A program made the position numbers and the translations under genes. DNA of 24,287 bases from a virus. The notes under the pieces were generated by a model. That model was not told where the DNA came from, ran no database searches, and worked only from the letters and a program-made list of their open reading frames with translations. Where the stretch lies: the IMG/VR virus record IMGVR_UViG_3300032093_000814, positions 1 to 24,287 of that record. One strand, given 5' to 3'. The stretch's first letter is position 1; each line of letters begins with the position of its first letter. This document shows positions 1,133-23,447 of this stretch, piece after piece.

Positions 1133-1266
1133 AACTGGGATTCATTCTGTTCTTCTTGACTTTCTTTACAGTTCCGCTAGGGCTGGCAGAGGATTCTCCC
1201 TTGCTGGTGGCTATTCCGATTGCGGTTTGGATCGGGGCTATTCTGTTCGGAAATGAGGTTCAATGA
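1129..1266 (+). CDS. 45-aa small membrane protein
   Basis: ATG at 1129 overlaps the TGA of the 159-aa gene, and TGA at 1264-1266 overlaps the ATG of the Rpf-like gene. The peptide is almost wholly hydrophobic, with two segments (MKLGFILFFLTFFTVPLG and a second around LLVAIPIAVWIGAILF) separated by a short acidic turn (AEDSP). This suits a two-pass membrane hairpin, or a signal peptide plus one TM. Its direct coupling to a cell-wall-active gene raises the possibility of a role in envelope access or lysis, which is inference only. Confidence 0.6.
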   Translation: MKLGFILFFLTFFTVPLGLAEDSPLLVAIPIAVWIGAILFGNEVQ

Positions 1267-1664
1267 CTACTCGATTACTAATTGGAGTAATCGCTTTCGG
1301 GGCTGGTTTCATACTAGCCCCGAAGGAATTACCTACTAAGGAAGTTATCGTTGCTGAAAGGATTGAAGTTCCTGTCGTTTATGAAATGACACTTACCGAC
1401 CTTCCTTTAGCTTGGCAAGAATTAGCCAAGTGTGAATCTAATGGCAGACTTAATGCTGTAAGCGGCACTAAGAAACAATTTCAAGGGGCATTCCAGATTG
1501 AATACCCTAGAACTTGGGTTGCTCATGGCGGTGACAGCGATACTCCGCCGAAGAAAGCGACACTCAAAGAGCAGTTCCATGTAGCTCTTCATATCTATGC
1601 AGATCGTGGGGCCAAGCCTTGGCCTTACTGTGGCAAGTTCCTAAAGGAAGAGTATGGAAGGTAA
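1263..1664 (+). CDS. Rpf-like (resuscitation-promoting factor type) transglycosylase
   Basis: The 133-aa protein has an N-terminal hydrophobic segment (residues 4-20, LLIGVIAFGAGFILAP) that would anchor or export it, then an Rpf-like domain from about 50 to 126. The diagnostic block is WQELAKCESNGRLNAVSG, with the conserved Cys57 followed by the expected catalytic Glu58. It continues with FQGAFQIEYPRTWVAHGG and closes with AKPWPYC (Cys123), which should form the disulfide with Cys57. Rpf domains are lysozyme/SLT-fold enzymes that cut peptidoglycan glycan strands and are mainly actinobacterial, supporting an actinobacterial host. The gene lies in the early-looking cluster, about 8 kb from the endolysin and on the opposite strand, so it is unlikely to be the main late lysin. 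Confidence 0.85.
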   Translation: MTTRLLIGVIAFGAGFILAPKELPTKEVIVAERIEVPVVYEMTLTDLPLAWQELAKCESNGRLNAVSGTKKQFQGAFQIEYPRTWVAHGGDSDTPPKKATLKEQFHVALHIYADRGAKPWPYCGKFLKEEYGR

Positions 1665-17301: not shown

Positions 17302-18204
17302 TTACCTCTTATAGTGGAGTCGGGGAGGGTATAGATCTCGGAGTGATGCAGCTTCTTGTTGGAGTCGCTGCGTATACAGACCAAGATAGAAACGAGCTGT
17401 AGAAGCACCTGAGCCGACCGGCTTCGACTGGTCGAGCATATCCGCTTCTACGCTTTGGAATGGAATCTTTGCTGCATCGCTATTCATAAGCAGACGAGCT
17501 ATGGTTCCATACATAATTGCATCAACAGAACTTGATGGGAAACCAGTAACAGTTTCATATACATCACTATCTGATGTCAATATGGTAGGTGCTTTGGCAA
17601 AAGTAATTTGAACGGTTCTACCCGGATCAATAGAATCAAATATGTTAATAGTTTTACCATTAGGAAATGATGTTGTGTTGGCTACTTTATCTGTGTTATA
17701 TCTTCTTACATTTAGCCATTCTTTAGTTGATCCAATAGTCTGCCACTTTACATCAAGAACATATTCCATAGCAGCAGGAAGAGAGTAAGTAGTTACAGCA
17801 GAGTTAAAGGAGAAAGTGTGTGTTCCTACTGCAAATAGTTCTGGGTAAGAAGCTTGAATTGTGTCATTAATTGTTTGCTTAACAAGACTTCTAGGATAAA
17901 TAGGTGCAACAATTACTTTTGCATTATTAGCAGCAGTTGCTGCTGTAGTGCCACGAAATCCTCTGCCCCATGGAGTAACTGTTACTGTCTTAGTAAGGTT
18001 ATCAACCTTATCAAGATAGATAAGTTCATCACCAATTTCAATAAGACCACGACCCATTTGATTAGTTTCATTAACTATAAATGAGGTGGCATTAGCAGTA
18101 ATTCCACCTGCTTGATTAATCCAAGTAGCTGTTTCTAATTGAGCAGAACCACTTTGAATATTAGACATTACTTTATCTATAAGCTGACCAAAGGTAGTTG
18201 ACAT
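17302..18204 (-). CDS. Adaptor-like virion protein
   Basis: The protein is 300 aa. The front has FGQLIDKVMSNIQSGSAQLE, then a beta domain with IEIGDELIYLDKVDNLTKTV and VTPWGRGFRGTTAA. The centre (SLVKQTINDTIQASYPELFA) and the C-terminal helix (DAIMYGTIARLLMNSDAAKI, ending LRDLYPPRLHYKR) look like head-tail connector or adaptor proteins. It directly precedes the main fibre gene, where an adaptor or fibre-anchoring ring component would be expected. I cannot separate a gp6/gp11-type adaptor from a baseplate ring protein by eye. Confidence 0.65.
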   Translation of the reverse strand: MSTTFGQLIDKVMSNIQSGSAQLETATWINQAGGITANATSFIVNETNQMGRGLIEIGDELIYLDKVDNLTKTVTVTPWGRGFRGTTAATAANNAKVIVAPIYPRSLVKQTINDTIQASYPELFAVGTHTFSFNSAVTTYSLPAAMEYVLDVKWQTIGSTKEWLNVRRYNTDKVANTTSFPNGKTINIFDSIDPGRTVQITFAKAPTILTSDSDVYETVTGFPSSSVDAIMYGTIARLLMNSDAAKIPFQSVEADMLDQSKPVGSGASTARFYLGLYTQRLQQEAASLRDLYPPRLHYKR

Positions 18205-18473: not shown

Positions 18474-18640
18474 TACTTGCCCTTCTTCCTTAATACTGCT
18501 GCGTTATCTACAAGGTTTGGATACTTGCGACCAGCAGCTTTTGCTCTAGCTTTTGCCTGAGTTTTCTGTGCAGGTGTTAGTTTCGTAGATTTTTTCTTTG
18601 GGTTTTTTGTATCCCAGAATGCTTTTTTCTTTTTCACCAT
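18473..18640 (-). CDS. 55-aa very basic protein
   Basis: ATG at 18640, TAA at 18475-18473 (TAATG overlap with the next gene). The peptide begins MVKKKKAFWDTKNPKKKS and continues LTPAQKTQAKARAKAAGRKY with PNLVDNAAVL. The K/R-A-A-G-R-x-Y-P-N-L-V-D-N tail is, as I recall, a motif found in small hypothetical proteins of several phages. It overlaps the upstream basic gene by 7 nt, so the region 18473-19600 is a continuous, coupled set of basic proteins. A nucleic-acid or capsid-binding role is inferred from charge. Confidence 0.7.
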   Translation of the reverse strand: MVKKKKAFWDTKNPKKKSTKLTPAQKTQAKARAKAAGRKYPNLVDNAAVLRKKGK

Positions 18641-18909
18641 TTCACCTTATCTGCCCAGTATGCGGCTGACATCTTTCCTTTAGAAATATTTTTTGCATGA
18701 CGAGCCTTAAATGACTTCTGTCGTTTAGTTGGTTGACGATCGCCTGTGACACCCTGTTGACCAAACCTAATTGTCTTAACCTGTGATCCTTCTTTGGCTA
18801 CGACAACATGAGACTTGGTAGGGTGAGAAGGGGTTCTCTTAGGTTTATTAAACCCAGATACCCCTGCTCTCTTAAGTCGAGGATCTGCCTTACTTCTTTT
18901 TTCCGCCAC
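18634..18909 (-). CDS. 91-aa basic protein, DUF6321-like
   Basis: The product reads MAEKRSKADPRLKRAGVSGF, KPKRTPSHPTKSHVVVAKEG, then IRFGQQGVTGDRQPTKRQKS and ends KMSAAYWADKVKW. This ordered, well-conserved-looking basic sequence is familiar to me from small proteins of aquatic podovirus-like phages; I believe the family is DUF6321, but I am not certain of the label. No enzyme motif is visible. Its first 20 nt overlap the end of the Ntn-hydrolase gene, so the two are coupled. It may bind DNA or the head interior. Confidence 0.7.
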   Translation of the reverse strand: MAEKRSKADPRLKRAGVSGFNKPKRTPSHPTKSHVVVAKEGSQVKTIRFGQQGVTGDRQPTKRQKSFKARHAKNISKGKMSAAYWADKVKW

Positions 18910-19600
18910 GCTTCTTTGCTTTCTTCATTACCATTTTCTTACCAGACTTCTTAGCATCTGCCTTAGCCATTGCCATACCTTTAGCGGTATATGCGTATTC
19001 TTTCTTTCCTACCTTTGGCATATCCTTACCCCTTTGTGTGATTATTTTGGTTTTCCCACCTGTGTTTATATCAAACGAGGCAGAAATCTCTATTGCTTTC
19101 TTTGCTTCATTTACTGCAACTTTGGTGCTTGTTGGGGAAATGTTAGCTCTTGATAAAGAGCCAAGTGCATAGGATCCACCGGATCCAACTGCATATACTC
19201 CACGATCATCTCTGCACCAAGAGAAATCATTATCTATCTGATATATCTTTCCACGGATACATATTAAGGCATCAAACCCTGCATCCTCGTTAGGCATACC
19301 ATCTTCCTTCTTTGGAGAAGGATCGTATCCATAGTCGGTAAAAGCTTGTCTAAGTGATGGCATTAGATCTGTCATCATAAACTTATCTAAATTAACTACC
19401 TTTGGTAGTTTTGGTGGGATCCAACAGAAGTTGGCAATATCCCCGGCGATAGCATCGCCAGCAAAGGCAAAGACATACTCGCCTTTTTCAATGACTTTAT
19501 CCATGCCATTGGCTATAAACTTTTGACTACCTGAAACCATCAAGGAATCTGCTGCTATAAGGCCCCAGCCTTTACCTTGGATTCCAACGATGGTAGTCAT
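18890..19600 (-). CDS. Proteasome/HslV-like Ntn hydrolase with Lys-rich tail
   Basis: The protein is 236 aa. After Met1 the chain begins TTIVGIQGKGWGLIAADS, matching proteasome beta and HslV subunits: the nucleophile would be Thr2 after Met removal, with Asp18 (Asp17 in mature numbering) and Lys35 (Lys33 with one loop residue added). FAFAGDAIAGD follows as in HslV, and YAVGSGGSYALGSL (136-149) is the conserved GSGG segment. VNEAKKAIEISASFDINTGG completes the fold. Residues 196-236 form a separate Lys/Ala-rich tail (MVMKKAKKRGGKKK). Family members are threonine peptidases forming rings; in this head-tail operon a role in capsid or scaffold processing is possible but unproven. No ATPase partner is present. 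Confidence 0.85.
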   Translation of the reverse strand: MTTIVGIQGKGWGLIAADSLMVSGSQKFIANGMDKVIEKGEYVFAFAGDAIAGDIANFCWIPPKLPKVVNLDKFMMTDLMPSLRQAFTDYGYDPSPKKEDGMPNEDAGFDALICIRGKIYQIDNDFSWCRDDRGVYAVGSGGSYALGSLSRANISPTSTKVAVNEAKKAIEISASFDINTGGKTKIITQRGKDMPKVGKKEYAYTAKGMAMAKADAKKSGKKMVMKKAKKRGGKKK

Positions 19601-19602
19601 TA

Positions 19603-19875
19603 TCAGTCCTTAAAACTATTGGTGTTGGCATCGAAGGCTTTACCAGCCATATTCGATAGCTCAACAGCCCCTCGGATATCTTTCATATTAGTTGTTGCTG
19701 GTTCAATGCCTTGGTCTATCGCTGACTTGTAAGCATTGAGTTCACTATCCCAAGACTTCTGAGACATTACCCTTCTGCTATTAGCATCTCCTGTATTAAC
19801 TTGTAATCCTGAATCTCTAAGGCATTCTCCCCAGTTAGCATGATCCTGAGTGGGGCAACCTGTCCTACATGCCAT
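19603..19875 (-). CDS. 90-aa structural-operon protein with Cys/His N-terminus
   Basis: The product starts MACRTGCPTQDHANWGECLR, placing Cys3, Cys7, His12 and Cys18 in a compact cluster that could hold a metal ion. The rest is helical, with SWDSELNAYKSAIDQGIEPA and AVELSNMAGKAFD. It starts where the previous stop ends (overlap at 19875) and ends 2 nt before the Ntn hydrolase gene. It probably belongs to the head-tail module. No family is recognised. Confidence 0.65.
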   Translation of the reverse strand: MACRTGCPTQDHANWGECLRDSGLQVNTGDANSRRVMSQKSWDSELNAYKSAIDQGIEPATTNMKDIRGAVELSNMAGKAFDANTNSFKD

Positions 19876-20186
19876 TATGACCTCAATACTAAAAATCCAT
19901 TATGTGCTTCATCAGATGCGGCATCAGCTTCACCTTGAGTCTTTATTGTATACCCTAGACCCACTAAAACATCTTTAACCGCTTCGGTTACGACATGCTC
20001 TCTTCCGCCAAGAAAGACATACTGATATTCATTTAACTCATCTTCTGTTACTGCCCGAGATGTGGTGACTGTAGCTCCATCTATTAGGACTGCCACACCC
20101 CTTGGAGATACGACTCTTCTCCACCATTTGTCTCGCAATGGATAACCCTCCATTACCTGCGGTGGATAAAAAGTATAAGTAGCCAT
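19875..20186 (-). CDS. Putative small head-tail connector protein
   Basis: The product is 103 aa, beta-rich, with MATYTFYPPQVMEGYPLRDK and WWRRVVSPRGVAVLIDGATV at the front, then TEDELNEYQYVFLGGREHVV and VLVGLGYTIKTQGEAD. It is the first gene after the major capsid gene, the usual place for completion or connector proteins, and has a good AAAGGAG ribosome site. The sequence itself shows no diagnostic motif, so the role rests on position. Confidence 0.6.
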   Translation of the reverse strand: MATYTFYPPQVMEGYPLRDKWWRRVVSPRGVAVLIDGATVTTSRAVTEDELNEYQYVFLGGREHVVTEAVKDVLVGLGYTIKTQGEADAASDEAHNGFLVLRS

Positions 20187-20244: not shown

Positions 20245-21168
20245 TTAAAGAGCTGATGCACCGGTTTCCAAACGAACAACGGCATCATCACGGAAGATGC
20301 CCCATCCGCCAAAGTACTTCCAGCCGAGTGCTGACTTACGGCGAAGGATGTCGATCTGAGGTGCAATGACGGTTTGTACATCATAGACATTAGCCTCAAG
20401 AAGAGCTTCCTTACCAACTGCAACAGCCTTGTAGACAGTTGCAGATGATGCACCGTCTGCACCTGAAGGTACACGAGTTGTCTGAACAACTTGGAATCCT
20501 TCAAGAACACCGATGGTGCCAGTCAATAGGTTGCCAACATTCTCAGTTGTGTACTTGTGAATGTCAACGAATCCACCTGATCCAGTTTCGGCACGAAGGT
20601 CGAAAGCTTGGCGTGGGTGAATAAACAGAGTGTAGAGATCTCCAACACGAGGTTGTGCTGAAGCCTCTAGAAGTGTGGTCTGAGCCTTACGAAGCATTGT
20701 TGTTGAAAGAACATCAGATGCTGTAAGGGTTGCTGTTGAGGTACGAGTTCCACCGTACTTAACAGCAGTTCCACCAACGAGAACGGTTGCAACAAGCTTG
20801 TCGAGAGTATCGGCAGCGTTGAATGCAATAGCATCACCAATCATTGTATCAATGTCGGAGAATGCAGCGAAGTTTACCTTCTCAGTTTGCTCAACTGCAT
20901 TACCGTATTCGGTAACAGTTACGCTTACTTGAGATGGGTTTGCCAAAGCAACCGGTGTAATATCGGATGTTTCGGTTAGAGCTGTGGTAGCAGCAGTCAA
21001 GTTAGCATAAACTGCAAACTTGAGAGATGTACCCGGGTTGGTCATTGAAACTGGTCGTAGGTCTGCAACAGAACGCATAACAGGAAGTGAGCGGAGTGCA
21101 GCACGAACATATGTGTCATATGCATTGACTACGAGGTTGCCAAGACCAGAGATTTGTGTAGTTGCCAT
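20245..21168 (-). CDS. Major capsid protein, N4-gp56-like
   Basis: The protein is 307 aa. The N-terminal arm has DTYVRAALRSLPVMRSVADL, the core has EYGNAVEQTEKVNFAAFSDI and ADTLDKLVATVLVGGTAVKY, then LRKAQTTLLEASAQPRVGDL and YTLFIHPRQAFDLRAETGSG. The C-terminal part has LLEANVYDVQTVIAPQIDIL and KYFGGWGIFRDDAVVRLET. Order and motifs fit the N4-gp56 family of HK97-fold capsid proteins, in which no long delta domain is present. It follows the scaffold gene and has the strongest structural call in the window. Confidence 0.9.
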   Translation of the reverse strand: MATTQISGLGNLVVNAYDTYVRAALRSLPVMRSVADLRPVSMTNPGTSLKFAVYANLTAATTALTETSDITPVALANPSQVSVTVTEYGNAVEQTEKVNFAAFSDIDTMIGDAIAFNAADTLDKLVATVLVGGTAVKYGGTRTSTATLTASDVLSTTMLRKAQTTLLEASAQPRVGDLYTLFIHPRQAFDLRAETGSGGFVDIHKYTTENVGNLLTGTIGVLEGFQVVQTTRVPSGADGASSATVYKAVAVGKEALLEANVYDVQTVIAPQIDILRRKSALGWKYFGGWGIFRDDAVVRLETGASAL

Positions 21169-21193: not shown

Positions 21194-21673
21194 TTAATAG
21201 CCCTGCTTACCAAGATCTGCAAAGAGCTGCTTTAAGGCTTCTGGGCCTTTGGCAGCAGCTTCATCCATTTGAGATTGAATCAACTTTTCTCTGTCGGCTG
21301 TCATGCCGGCATCCATAGTTGATTGAGCCTTCATGTAATTTTCTTTGAAACCTTCTGGCAAGTTAGAGCTTGCTTGGTTGGTTGATTGACTTTCGATTCC
21401 GAAAACATCTCCGTATTCAGAAAGCCAAGTCGACAACGATTCCTCCGTGAGGTCGATGTCCTGTGGAATGAATGCCGCTATTTTCGGATTCACACCACGA
21501 GAGGTGAGGGTTTCTTTGATGGTTCTATCTCGTTTTTCTTTACGCAGTTCGGAAAGCTCTACCTGAATTTCTTTCAGTTGCTTTTCTTTTTGCTTATTAG
21601 CTTTGCGTAGTTGAGAAAATGCATCATTCGAATCTAATTCGAAATCTTCCTCATCATCTTCGTAATTGGACAT
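21194..21673 (-). CDS. Capsid scaffolding protein
   Basis: The product is 159 aa. A very acidic start (DDEEDFELDSND) is followed by a coiled coil (LRKANKQKEKQLKEIQVELS, ELRKEKRDRTIKET), a small folded part (GVNPKIAAFIPQDIDLTEES), a Gln/Ser linker and a C-terminal helix (ADREKLIQSQMDEAAAKGPE). Highly charged coiled-coil proteins directly before the capsid gene are scaffolds that shape the prohead and are then removed. The Ntn hydrolase downstream could be the protease that removes it, which is inference. Confidence 0.8.
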   Translation of the reverse strand: MSNYEDDEEDFELDSNDAFSQLRKANKQKEKQLKEIQVELSELRKEKRDRTIKETLTSRGVNPKIAAFIPQDIDLTEESLSTWLSEYGDVFGIESQSTNQASSNLPEGFKENYMKAQSTMDAGMTADREKLIQSQMDEAAAKGPEALKQLFADLGKQGY

Positions 21674-21786: not shown

Positions 21787-21876
21787 GAGTGGGTGTTCAG
21801 GTCTTGAACCTGAATGACTGCCAGTCACCCGACCGATTAAACGGTTCTTGTTCTTAATGCTCTCTGCCCAACTCCG
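21787..21876 (-). other. Structured, tRNA-like hairpin element
   Basis: On the minus strand, TTCAGG-TTCAAGA-CCTGAA (21815-21797) is a perfect 6-bp hairpin with a TTCRA T-loop. It is preceded by TGACTGGCAGTCA, whose loop CTGGCAG has a U33-like base, and by AACCG-TTTAAT-CGGTC. GGGTG and CACCC (21831-21827 and 21796-21792) can close the first two; alternatively GGAGTTGGG and CCCACTCC close all three. It overlaps the last codons of the LysM gene. Variable region and acceptor geometry are wrong for a functional tRNA. Confidence 0.4.
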
Positions 21877-23447
21877 GTTGTTCCAGAGAATTGTGCAAGG
21901 TTTGTAGCTCTTAATCTACCCATGGTTTCTGTGGCTCCGACATCTCCACCGAACTCGGCAGCGATAGCTTCTTTGGCTCCAAAGTTTTCGCCATAGATTG
22001 AAGCAAGATCTCCATACTGCTGAATGTTTTTAGCAACCTGTGAGAACTTCTGTCTCTGAGTTCCATAGGCAAGTGATCCTGCACCGTATTGCTGTGCAAT
22101 ATCTGCTTGCTCTTTGGTTAAGCCCTCAAGAAGGGCTGCTGCTGTATTAAGGTTCTTACCTGCAATACCCTCAAGAATTGATTGACCTCTTGCTGGATCA
22201 ATCATGTAGGCAGTAGTCATATCATCAGTAATCCCATAAAGACTCTTAAGTTGATCACGGATTGCTGGATTAGTTGATTGCACGAAATCTCTATATGCTT
22301 GGAATACATTTGCTACATCAACATTTGTATAGTTGTTTTGTAGGAATGTTTGGAAATCACTTGTTTGATCGTAGAAACCTTTTGGTGCATTATAGGAAGT
22401 AAGAACCTTTTGGTATTCATCTTCCATACCAACAATAGTCTTTTCATCTAATGAACGATATCCAGCCTTAATACGAGCTTCATTAACCTTACCGAATCTT
22501 TCATAGTAAGGTGCTGTTTGGATCAGTTGTAGATAGAAACCTTCTGTGGTTGTAGGTATCTCATCAAACTTCTTACCACTTCGGTCTACGCCTTCTCCCT
22601 TAAAAATATCAGAGATTACTTTACCGAACTCTGGAACACCCATCTGAGTGAATCGTTCTGTGATAATGTCATATGCAGACTTGCGTTCTTTAGCTAACTG
22701 CTCAAGTTTTGCTTGTTCAGCAGCTTTCTGTTGGGCAGTAAGTTGTGCTTGGAAACTAGCCATTGATTTTGCAAGGGCTGCATCGATAGCCTTCTGCACA
22801 TCTTCTGGGGTCATTCCTTGTTGTGAAGTATCCGGTGCTGGAGTATCTGTATATGTTCCATCGCTGTAATAAGTACGAATTACACGATTGGCACCAGATC
22901 CAAGAATCTCGGTTCTTGTAACAGTTTTACCTGTTGGAGTACCAACAATCTCAGTAGTTCCATCATCATAGGTAACTGTGAATGTGCCATCAGGATTTTT
23001 AACACGAGATACTTCTTTTTTACCGGGTTTATCTTCAGGAAAGTTTGACTTAAATGTTCCAGATACTGGATCATATGTATATGGTGCAGTTGGCGTTACT
23101 GTTTCGCCATCTGCTGTTGTATAACCAGTTTCTGTTCTAGTTGCACCGACTGGTATTGGGCCAGTAAATTGCCCACCTTCTGGTGCTGGGGTAGTAAATG
23201 GACTTCCTGTTGGAATATTACCTGCTGTACTTGCTGGGGTAGTACCTGCTGAATCAGAAACTATTTTTGATTTTGGTGCATCTGGAATTTTAATTGTTGT
23301 TCCCGAGAATAAGGTTCTACCATCATTATATTTAGCTTCTGTGGTTAGTTTAGGGTTGGCATCAAGCAAAGCAGAGACCGTAGTATTATTTGCTTTAGCT
23401 ATACTAGAAAGCGTTTGACCACTTTTAACTTTTACTTTTTCTGCCAT
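21837..23447 (-). CDS. LysM-domain virion-associated protein
   Basis: The protein is 536 aa. Residues 3-54 form a LysM domain (KVKSGQTLSSIAKANNTTVS, then LLDANPKLTTEAK and GTTIKIPD), which binds N-acetylglucosamine in peptidoglycan. A Pro/Thr-rich spacer and a beta-rich region (about 55-215, KNPDGTFTVTYDDGTTEIVG) lead to a coiled coil (about 225-265, AQLTAQQKAAEQAKLEQLAK) and a helical C-terminal half (AYMIDPARGQSILEGIAGKN). No lytic catalytic residues are obvious. Placed just before scaffold and after another large helical gene, it is likely an internal or tail-tip protein that helps penetrate or grip the cell wall at infection. Confidence 0.8.
   Translation of the reverse strand: MAEKVKVKSGQTLSSIAKANNTTVSALLDANPKLTTEAKYNDGRTLFSGTTIKIPDAPKSKIVSDSAGTTPASTAGNIPTGSPFTTPAPEGGQFTGPIPVGATRTETGYTTADGETVTPTAPYTYDPVSGTFKSNFPEDKPGKKEVSRVKNPDGTFTVTYDDGTTEIVGTPTGKTVTRTEILGSGANRVIRTYYSDGTYTDTPAPDTSQQGMTPEDVQKAIDAALAKSMASFQAQLTAQQKAAEQAKLEQLAKERKSAYDIITERFTQMGVPEFGKVISDIFKGEGVDRSGKKFDEIPTTTEGFYLQLIQTAPYYERFGKVNEARIKAGYRSLDEKTIVGMEDEYQKVLTSYNAPKGFYDQTSDFQTFLQNNYTNVDVANVFQAYRDFVQSTNPAIRDQLKSLYGITDDMTTAYMIDPARGQSILEGIAGKNLNTAAALLEGLTKEQADIAQQYGAGSLAYGTQRQKFSQVAKNIQQYGDLASIYGENFGAKEAIAAEFGGDVGATETMGRLRATNLAQFSGTTGVGQRALRTRTV

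What the first reader, a model, noticed from the sequence alone, without database searches (positions are those of the whole stretch)
18890..19600. Proteasome/HslV-like threonine hydrolase inside the head-tail operon, with a Lys-rich tail
Thr after Met1, Asp17 and a Lys at position 33/34 (mature numbering) and the GSGG loop are all visible, so the enzyme looks intact. No HslU/Mpa-type ATPase is in the window. The C-terminal 40 residues are Lys-rich, unlike cellular family members. Lying between capsid/scaffold and tail genes, it is a candidate for a capsid maturation protease of an unusual fold, or for a virion-borne peptidase. I do not know whether such a phage protein has been characterised.
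Basis: partly seen in the sequence, partly recalled or inferred. Interest (0 to 1): 0.72.

Follow-up and report, generated by a model that had tools for sequence, protein, structure and literature searches.

The report
Proteasome-like peptidase in phage head operon
A very common group of lake phages that infect actinobacteria carries, among its capsid genes, an apparently working relative of the proteasome's cutting subunit; its lysine-rich end is a small neighbouring gene fused on, and it is probably a helper peptidase made late in infection, not an essential capsid-maturing protease.

Summary
Window 18890-19600(-) encodes an intact N-terminal-threonine (Ntn) hydrolase of the HslV/BPH branch of the proteasome family: PF00227 above cut-off, phrog_1040, a confident AlphaFold model, Thr1/Asp17/Lys33-type/Gly47 kept in about 220 relatives, dN/dS 0.06-0.16. 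It is an actinophage gene (WhiB present). The lysine-rich tail is not part of the enzyme: in sister phages it is a separate 43-codon gene, and here the stop between them is absent. In the window's lineage an Ntn gene follows MCP-gp103-gp90 in 61 of 61 MCP-selected contigs where the slot is visible. In a cousin lineage that includes the cultured Planktophila phages E7 and F5 it sits directly after the portal gene. That would suit a maturation protease, but three results speak against an obligate one: near-complete contigs with the same capsid and scaffold families lack it; it is displaced in place by about 35%-identical alleles while the capsid stays 95-98% identical; and the capsid protein shows no obvious cleavable propeptide. 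Best reading: a late, BPH-like, probably ATPase-independent accessory peptidase with no proven substrate. Phage proteasome homologues were already known; the head-operon setting, tail fusion and allele displacement look new.

The parts
19025..19600 (-). Ntn-hydrolase (proteasome-like, BPH/HslV branch) domain, residues 1-192; Met1 then catalytic Thr2
   Evidence: PF00227 and phrog_1040; AlphaFold mean pLDDT 83.9; Foldseek and VIA matches to BPH, HslV and 20S beta; catalytic residues conserved
18893..19021 (-). Lys-rich tail (residues 194-236), equal to a 43-codon stand-alone gene (phrog_33179) in sister phages, fused here by absence of the stop codon
   Evidence: phrog_33179 match to residues 194-231; separate ORF in L012, L014, L029, L035, L037 and stop-then-ATG in L019-L021; purifying selection on the tail
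19019..19035 (-). Internal start ATG of the former small gene, preceded by a Shine-Dalgarno-like AAAGGGG; both kept in the fused form, so the free 43-aa protein might also be made
   Evidence: sequence read; translation from this ATG is inference
18634..18909 (-). Next gene, small basic protein (91 aa, net +19, phrog_7595), overlapping the end of the Ntn gene; replaced by DUF6496 or other small basic genes in relatives
19603..19875 (-). 90-aa conserved head-module protein (gp90) directly upstream of the Ntn gene
   Evidence: phrog_10483; constant neighbour in the lineage
19875..20186 (-). 103-aa conserved head-module protein (gp103)
   Evidence: phrog_8987; constant order MCP-gp103-gp90
20245..21168 (-). 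Major capsid protein, Phage_capsid_3 / N4 gp56 type
   Evidence: PF13252 and phrog_1357
21194..21673 (-). Acidic scaffold-like protein (159 aa, net -11)
   Evidence: position before the MCP, phrog_7813, acidic and conserved; the scaffold role is inferred
17302..18204 (-). SU10-type head-tail adaptor
   Evidence: PF24175
5854..6159 (-). WhiB regulator, marker of an actinobacterial host
   Evidence: PF02467; whiB as actinophage marker in PMC6802176 and PMC10202952

Best explanation
The gene encodes an active N-terminal-threonine peptidase of the HslV/BPH branch (group I) of the proteasome family, carried by a freshwater actinophage. Steps. (1) Host methionine aminopeptidase removes Met1 and frees the catalytic Thr (inferred from the Met-Thr start). 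(2) Subunits assemble into a double ring with the active sites inside (inferred from fold and family). (3) A long, net-acidic H2-S7 pore loop, the distinguishing feature of BPH, lines the entrance, and no phage ATPase partner is found, so it probably takes short peptides or unfolded chains without ATP (inferred; loop and missing ATPase shown). (4) The basic tails would lie on the outside of the ring and could dock it on something acidic such as DNA, RNA or the scaffold (inferred; fusion and charge shown). (5) It is presumably transcribed with the head genes and most probably acts as an accessory clearing peptidase during late infection or assembly, with substrates not tied to the sequence of the capsid or scaffold (inferred from allele displacement and from absence in relatives).
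For: Fold: AlphaFold pLDDT 83.9; Foldseek best match BPH 5ovs E 2.8e-11; VIA Z about 20 to 20S beta subunits and BPH over residues 2-192, rmsd 2.6-3.4, about 170 aligned; family profile against PDB best with BPH 5ovu, E 4e-12, then HslV. Catalytic residues kept in about 220 relatives; dN/dS 0.06-0.16. H2-S7 loop net negative in 220 of 220, as in BPH, which lacks a known unfoldase (PMC5777263). No AAA_2 ATPase in 18 long contigs. Ntn gene present in 61 of 61 MCP-selected contigs of the window lineage with the slot visible. Absent in G033 (39.9 kb), G032 (37.6 kb) and G015 (35.9 kb). In-place displacement: L446/L448 MCP 98%, scaffold 86%, Ntn 35%; L106/L085 MCP 95%, scaffold 92%, Ntn 31%.
Against: No activity, oligomer or substrate has been measured. 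Purified BPH itself was inert on standard substrates (PMC5777263), so activity cannot be taken for granted. Constant residence in the head module, at one of two sites, and complete retention in the window lineage suggest a tighter link to head assembly than 'accessory' implies.
Confidence: 0.5

Rival explanations
1. Capsid maturation or scaffold-clearing protease of an unusual (proteasome) fold: the ring is built into the prohead and degrades the scaffold.
For: In E7-type phages the gene lies directly after the portal gene (about 200 loci), a usual place for prohead proteases; in the window lineage it lies after the capsid genes, still inside the head module. No S78, S49 or ClpP-type protease in 18 long contigs. 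The basic tail could bind the acidic scaffold (-11 to -15). It does not follow the swapped giant-protein cassette.
Against: Missing from phages with the same capsid and scaffold families, including near-complete G033, G032 and G015; no replacement protease of the families tested in these. Scaffolds of phages with and without it are alike in length and sequence. The capsid protein aligns from its N-terminus with no obvious propeptide. Alleles are displaced while capsid and scaffold stay 85-98% identical. Homologues in DSL-LC01, D'Alembert, Vibrio phage 1.101.O and XacN1 lie outside the head genes.
Confidence: 0.22
2. Virion-borne peptidase: packaged with the DNA (basic tail) or with internal proteins and delivered into the host at infection.
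For: Presumably late expression from the head operon; basic tail (+15); DSL-LC01 has an independent basic C-terminus; allele turnover as in host-directed cargo.
Against: Most homologues in the cousin lineage have no tail; a 12-14-mer would be bulky cargo; no virion proteomics was found.
Confidence: 0.15
3. A non-proteolytic Ntn enzyme, such as a ligase of the connectase kind or an amidase.
For: The proteasome family includes connectase, a protein ligase (PMC8665760), and BPH showed no peptidase activity (PMC5777263).
Against: No connectase-type insertion between strands 3 and 4 in the model; closest to BPH and HslV in sequence and fold.
Confidence: 0.08

Closest known systems
BPH (bacterial proteasome homologue; PDB 5ovs, 5ovt, 5ovu)
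   Same: Best Foldseek and profile match; same catalytic residues; no propeptide; long net-acidic H2-S7 pore loop; no unfoldase partner found
   Different: About 20-25% identical; phage gene inside a head operon; fused basic tail; oligomeric state unknown
HslV (ClpQ)
   Same: Met-Thr-Thr start, fold, GSGG loop
   Different: Far under the NCBIfam HslV cut-off (26 against 137 bits); no HslU; longer pore loop
Phage proteasome homologues AAH, PPH and CPH of Fuchs et al. 2021 (PMC8665760)
   Same: Group I relatives carried by tailed phages, function unknown
   Different: PPH has about 140 residues and lacks helix H2, this one has 192 core residues and H2; AAH could not be compared, and in 2021 no actinophage carrying AAH was known
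Ntn genes of Planktophila phages E7 and F5 (OX376640, OX376641; PMC10202952) and 'ATP-dependent protease subunit' of Actinomycetia phage DSL-LC01
   Same: Homologous actinophage enzymes, 32-38% identical, same catalytic residues
   Different: E7/F5: directly after portal, no tail; DSL-LC01: outside the head module, next to a WhiB gene, with its own basic C-terminus
Phage prohead proteases (S78, S49, ClpP-like)
   Same: Position in the head module, next to portal in the cousin lineage
   Different: Unrelated fold; not universal in the lineage; no cleavable capsid propeptide seen

Membership tests
Proteasome-like Ntn-hydrolase family (PF00227) | Curated profile score | tested here: met
   28.4 bits against a cut-off of 22.4
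Proteasome-like Ntn-hydrolase family (PF00227) | Alpha-beta-beta-alpha fold of 20S beta/HslV | tested here: met
   model pLDDT 83.9; Z about 20 over residues 2-192
Proteasome-like Ntn-hydrolase family (PF00227) | Catalytic Thr1, Asp/Glu17, Lys33, Gly47 | tested here: met
   conserved in about 220 relatives; Lys is at mature position 34 in this protein
Proteasome-like Ntn-hydrolase family (PF00227) | Ring assembly and peptidase activity | not testable with these tools
   no biochemistry; single-chain prediction only
HslV | Equivalog score | tested here: not met
   26.2 bits against 137 and 22.9 against 157.75
HslV | HslU partner ATPase in the same genome | tested here: not met
   no AAA_2 match in 18 long related contigs; a host HslU cannot be excluded
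20S proteasome beta (bacterial or archaeal) | Equivalog score | tested here: not met
   15.7 against 191.9 and 28.1 against 224
BPH | Closest solved structure and sequence | tested here: met
   (in one search BPH ties with 20S beta subunits)
BPH | Elongated acidic pore loop between H2 and S7 | tested here: met
   11-19 residues, net negative in 220 of 220; definition from PMC5777263
BPH | Tetradecameric double ring | not testable with these tools
   needs SAXS, EM or a crystal
BPH | Clustering with BPH rather than AAH or CPH | not tested
   reference alignments of Fuchs et al. 2021 not available here
PPH (phage proteasome homologue) | About 140 residues, no helix H2 | tested here: not met
   192 core residues and a helix at 71-89; definition from PMC8665760
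AAH | Clustering with AAH sequences | not testable with these tools
   no AAH reference set; the one genome-contig scan gave a single weak relative
Phage capsid maturation protease | Location in the head module | tested here: met
Phage capsid maturation protease | Present whenever the same capsid and scaffold types are present | tested here: not met
   absent in L130, L133, L138, L454, L466, L468 at the portal slot and in contigs G015, G032, G033
Phage capsid maturation protease | Cleavable capsid or scaffold propeptide | tested here: inconclusive
   no N-terminal delta domain seen in the MCP alignment; cleavage can only be seen in virions

The most novel reading that the evidence does not exclude
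A proteasome-fold barrel is the head-assembly protease of this actinophage group: it is drawn into the prohead, partly through a fused or separately made basic tail that binds the acidic scaffold, and clears the scaffold before packaging; phages without it let the scaffold leave uncut.
Probability: 0.2. Interest if true: 0.8.

Novelty: new variant of a known kind. Interest (0 to 1): 0.52.

Why it matters
Phage proteasome homologues have been listed since 2021 with no function and no informative gene context. Here the context is informative: in hundreds of lake-phage contigs the gene lives in the head module at one of two fixed sites, in one lineage without exception, and it is displaced by distant alleles in place instead of drifting with the capsid. 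Two cultured phages of 'Ca. Planktophila' (E7, F5) carry it, so its role can be tested directly by virion proteomics and inhibitor or mutant studies. If it processes head proteins it would be a maturation protease of a new fold; if not, it is a candidate late host-directed or clearing peptidase in one of the most abundant freshwater virus-host systems.

Tried and rejected
Lys-rich tail as an enzyme-specific extension: rejected, it is a fused small gene. Giant internal protein as coupled substrate: not supported. Pairs with portal about 95% identical have giant proteins with no similarity (L085/L199) or 89% similarity (L085/L198), yet Ntn identity is 74-75% in both. Ntn genes at both sites of one phage: not found. 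A different classical protease doing the job: no S78, S49 or ClpP match in 18 long contigs. Mantel test of Ntn against capsid distances: positive but modest (rho 0.32, 0 of 999 permutations as high), so co-inheritance is only partial. Profile A4 could not be used to scan genome contigs; the scan with A2 found one weak relative in a gammaproteobacterial MAG, so a cellular AAH comparison was not possible. The 43-aa tail alone found nothing in the phage collection (low-complexity filtering is likely). Literature searches for a phage proteasome-fold maturation protease found nothing.

Full report
WHAT IS THERE. The reported ORF (18890-19600, minus strand, 236 aa) is real. It passes the Pfam cut-off for PF00227 Proteasome and matches phrog_1040 'peptidase HslV family' at 2.7e-25. 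It is far below the NCBIfam cut-offs for HslV, archaeal beta and bacterial beta, so it belongs to the superfamily without being an orthologue of those. An AlphaFold model from 38 related viral sequences has mean pLDDT 83.9, with most of the core above 90 and the tail end below 50. Foldseek ranks BPH first (5ovs, E 2.8e-11), then HslV and 20S beta. VIA-align gives Z about 20 over residues 2-192 for 20S beta and BPH, with differences under 1 counted as ties. A family profile finds BPH 5ovu first (4e-12), then HslV.

ACTIVE SITE. Over 220 distinct relatives Thr1 is invariant where readable (217), Asp17 is D in 207 and E in 10, the catalytic Lys is K in all 220, Gly47 is G in 217, and the GSG loop glycines are invariant. 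In the window protein the Lys is at mature position 34. Core dN/dS against seven relatives is 0.06-0.16. The enzyme is therefore maintained by selection. The loop between helix H2 and strand S7 (residues 90-108) has 11-19 residues and is net negative in all 220. A long acidic loop here is what sets BPH apart from HslV (PMC5777263). No AAA_2 ATPase occurs in 18 long contigs of the group.

THE LYS-RICH TAIL. In sister phages the enzyme ends at codon 192-193, or after a short extension, and the tail is a separate 43-codon ORF: overlapping the enzyme's end (L029, L035, L037...AAATAATGCC...) or further downstream behind another small basic gene in a shifted frame (L012, L014); in L019-L021 a longer variant of the same small gene follows in frame behind a stop (...GGTAAATAAATGCC...). 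In the window the junction reads GGTAAGGATATGCC with no stop. The internal ATG and a Shine-Dalgarno-like AAAGGGG remain, so both fused and free forms may be made (inference). Other fused members carry different basic tails at the same codon (MSVKGEKYKS..., MAAAKKVSKK...). The enzyme thus sits next to a cassette of exchangeable small basic genes (phrog_33179, MSVK type, DUF6496, phrog_7595). The tail has net charge +15 and the core 0; the scaffold-like protein has -11. The tail is itself under strong purifying selection against close relatives (dN/dS 0.03-0.06). The distant homologue of phage DSL-LC01 has an independent basic C-terminus.

GENE CONTEXT. Two homes exist. In the window lineage the order is scaffold-MCP-gp103-gp90-Ntn-basic genes-gp89-adaptor. 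In the cousin lineage Ntn is directly after the portal gene (about 200 loci). Never both. When contigs are chosen by the window capsid, all 61 with the slot visible carry Ntn. When chosen by the cousins' capsids, 13 of 16 and 6 of 10 with the portal slot visible carry it (one Ntn-less contig is in both sets). Ntn-less contigs include G033 (39.9 kb), G032 (37.6 kb) and G015 (35.9 kb), with no match to the family profile anywhere in them; the related genomes are about 39-40 kb (PMC10202952), though these records are not certified complete. In G015 the portal is followed directly by the next small genes.

ALLELE DISPLACEMENT. L446 and L448 share MCP 98%, scaffold 86%, gp103 91%, gp89 92% and adaptor 85% identity, but Ntn only 35%. 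L106 and L085 share MCP 95%, scaffold 92%, Ntn 31%. The neighbouring giant-protein cassette is also swapped between close phages, but independently of Ntn. Ntn and capsid distances correlate only modestly (rho 0.32), and in the trees slot-2 Ntn groups with part of the slot-1 genes while slot-2 capsids are far from all slot-1 capsids (midpoint root and long branches, so the direction of the move is not settled).

HOST AND KNOWN RELATIVES. WhiB in the window marks an actinobacterial host; whiB is used as the actinophage marker in PMC6802176 and PMC10202952. GenBank OX376640 and OX376641, listed as 'Caudovirales sp. ct2KA10', match by record title (LanE43-AprE7) and genome sizes (39,112 and 38,889) the cultured Planktophila phages E7 and F5 of PMC10202952; that F5 is OX376641 is inferred from size. 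The paper says annotated genes include ones for degradation of the host's proteins; its table could not be read. Fuchs et al. (PMC8665760) described phage proteasome homologues PPH and AAH without function or telling context and found no actinophage with AAH. Other phage homologues lie in non-structural regions; one paper treats such a gene as a protein-metabolism gene (PMC8953757).

WHAT IT PROBABLY DOES. Shown: intact, selected, BPH/HslV-like enzyme; residence in the head module; fusion to a basic gene; no ATPase partner or classical head protease found. Inferred: Met removal, ring assembly, late expression, ATP-independent action on peptides or unfolded chains. Obligate capsid maturation is disfavoured by Ntn-less relatives, allele displacement without capsid change, unchanged scaffold and the lack of an obvious capsid propeptide, but the portal-adjacent position and complete retention in the window lineage keep it alive (about 0.2). 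Virion cargo (about 0.15) is untested. The best single reading is an accessory late peptidase whose substrates are not tied to capsid sequence (0.5).

LIMITS. All context data are metagenomic contigs, many short. MCP-selected sets are limited to the best 80 loci each and are not independent samples. Gene calls are ORF-based. No biochemistry or proteomics was available.

Noticed in passing
L089-L091 (G003, 47,612 bases): 1-1588 against 39969-41552: The contig carries the scaffold/LysM region twice at 80% identity, and a capsid fragment at its very start: probably two related phages joined in assembly, or a terminal overlap with strain variation.
   Followed up: partly
window 18634-18909 against OX376640 20122-20370: The small basic phrog_7595 gene is 90% identical between the window phage and E7-type phages whose capsids are only 41% identical, which suggests recent exchange of these mini-genes; relatives are also common in marine roseophages and cyanophages.
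   Followed up: partly
head module between portal and scaffold, e.g. L085 8284-16931: The giant 1700-1965 aa protein, gp145 and the LysM protein form a cassette replaced wholesale between phages with about 95% identical portals; probably the 8-kb island reported between E7 and F5 in PMC10202952.
   Followed up: partly
L314 661-1212(+) and 2261-2812(-): A 4.5-kb contig holds two Ntn genes in opposite orientation; real duplication or assembly artefact not resolved.
   Followed up: no
window 21837-23447: A LysM domain sits at the start of a 536-aa protein just upstream of the scaffold gene, unusual for a head-module protein.
   Followed up: no
window 1263-1664: Rpf-like transglycosylase gene on the plus strand opposite to nearly all other genes, fitting an actinobacterial host.
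   Followed up: no
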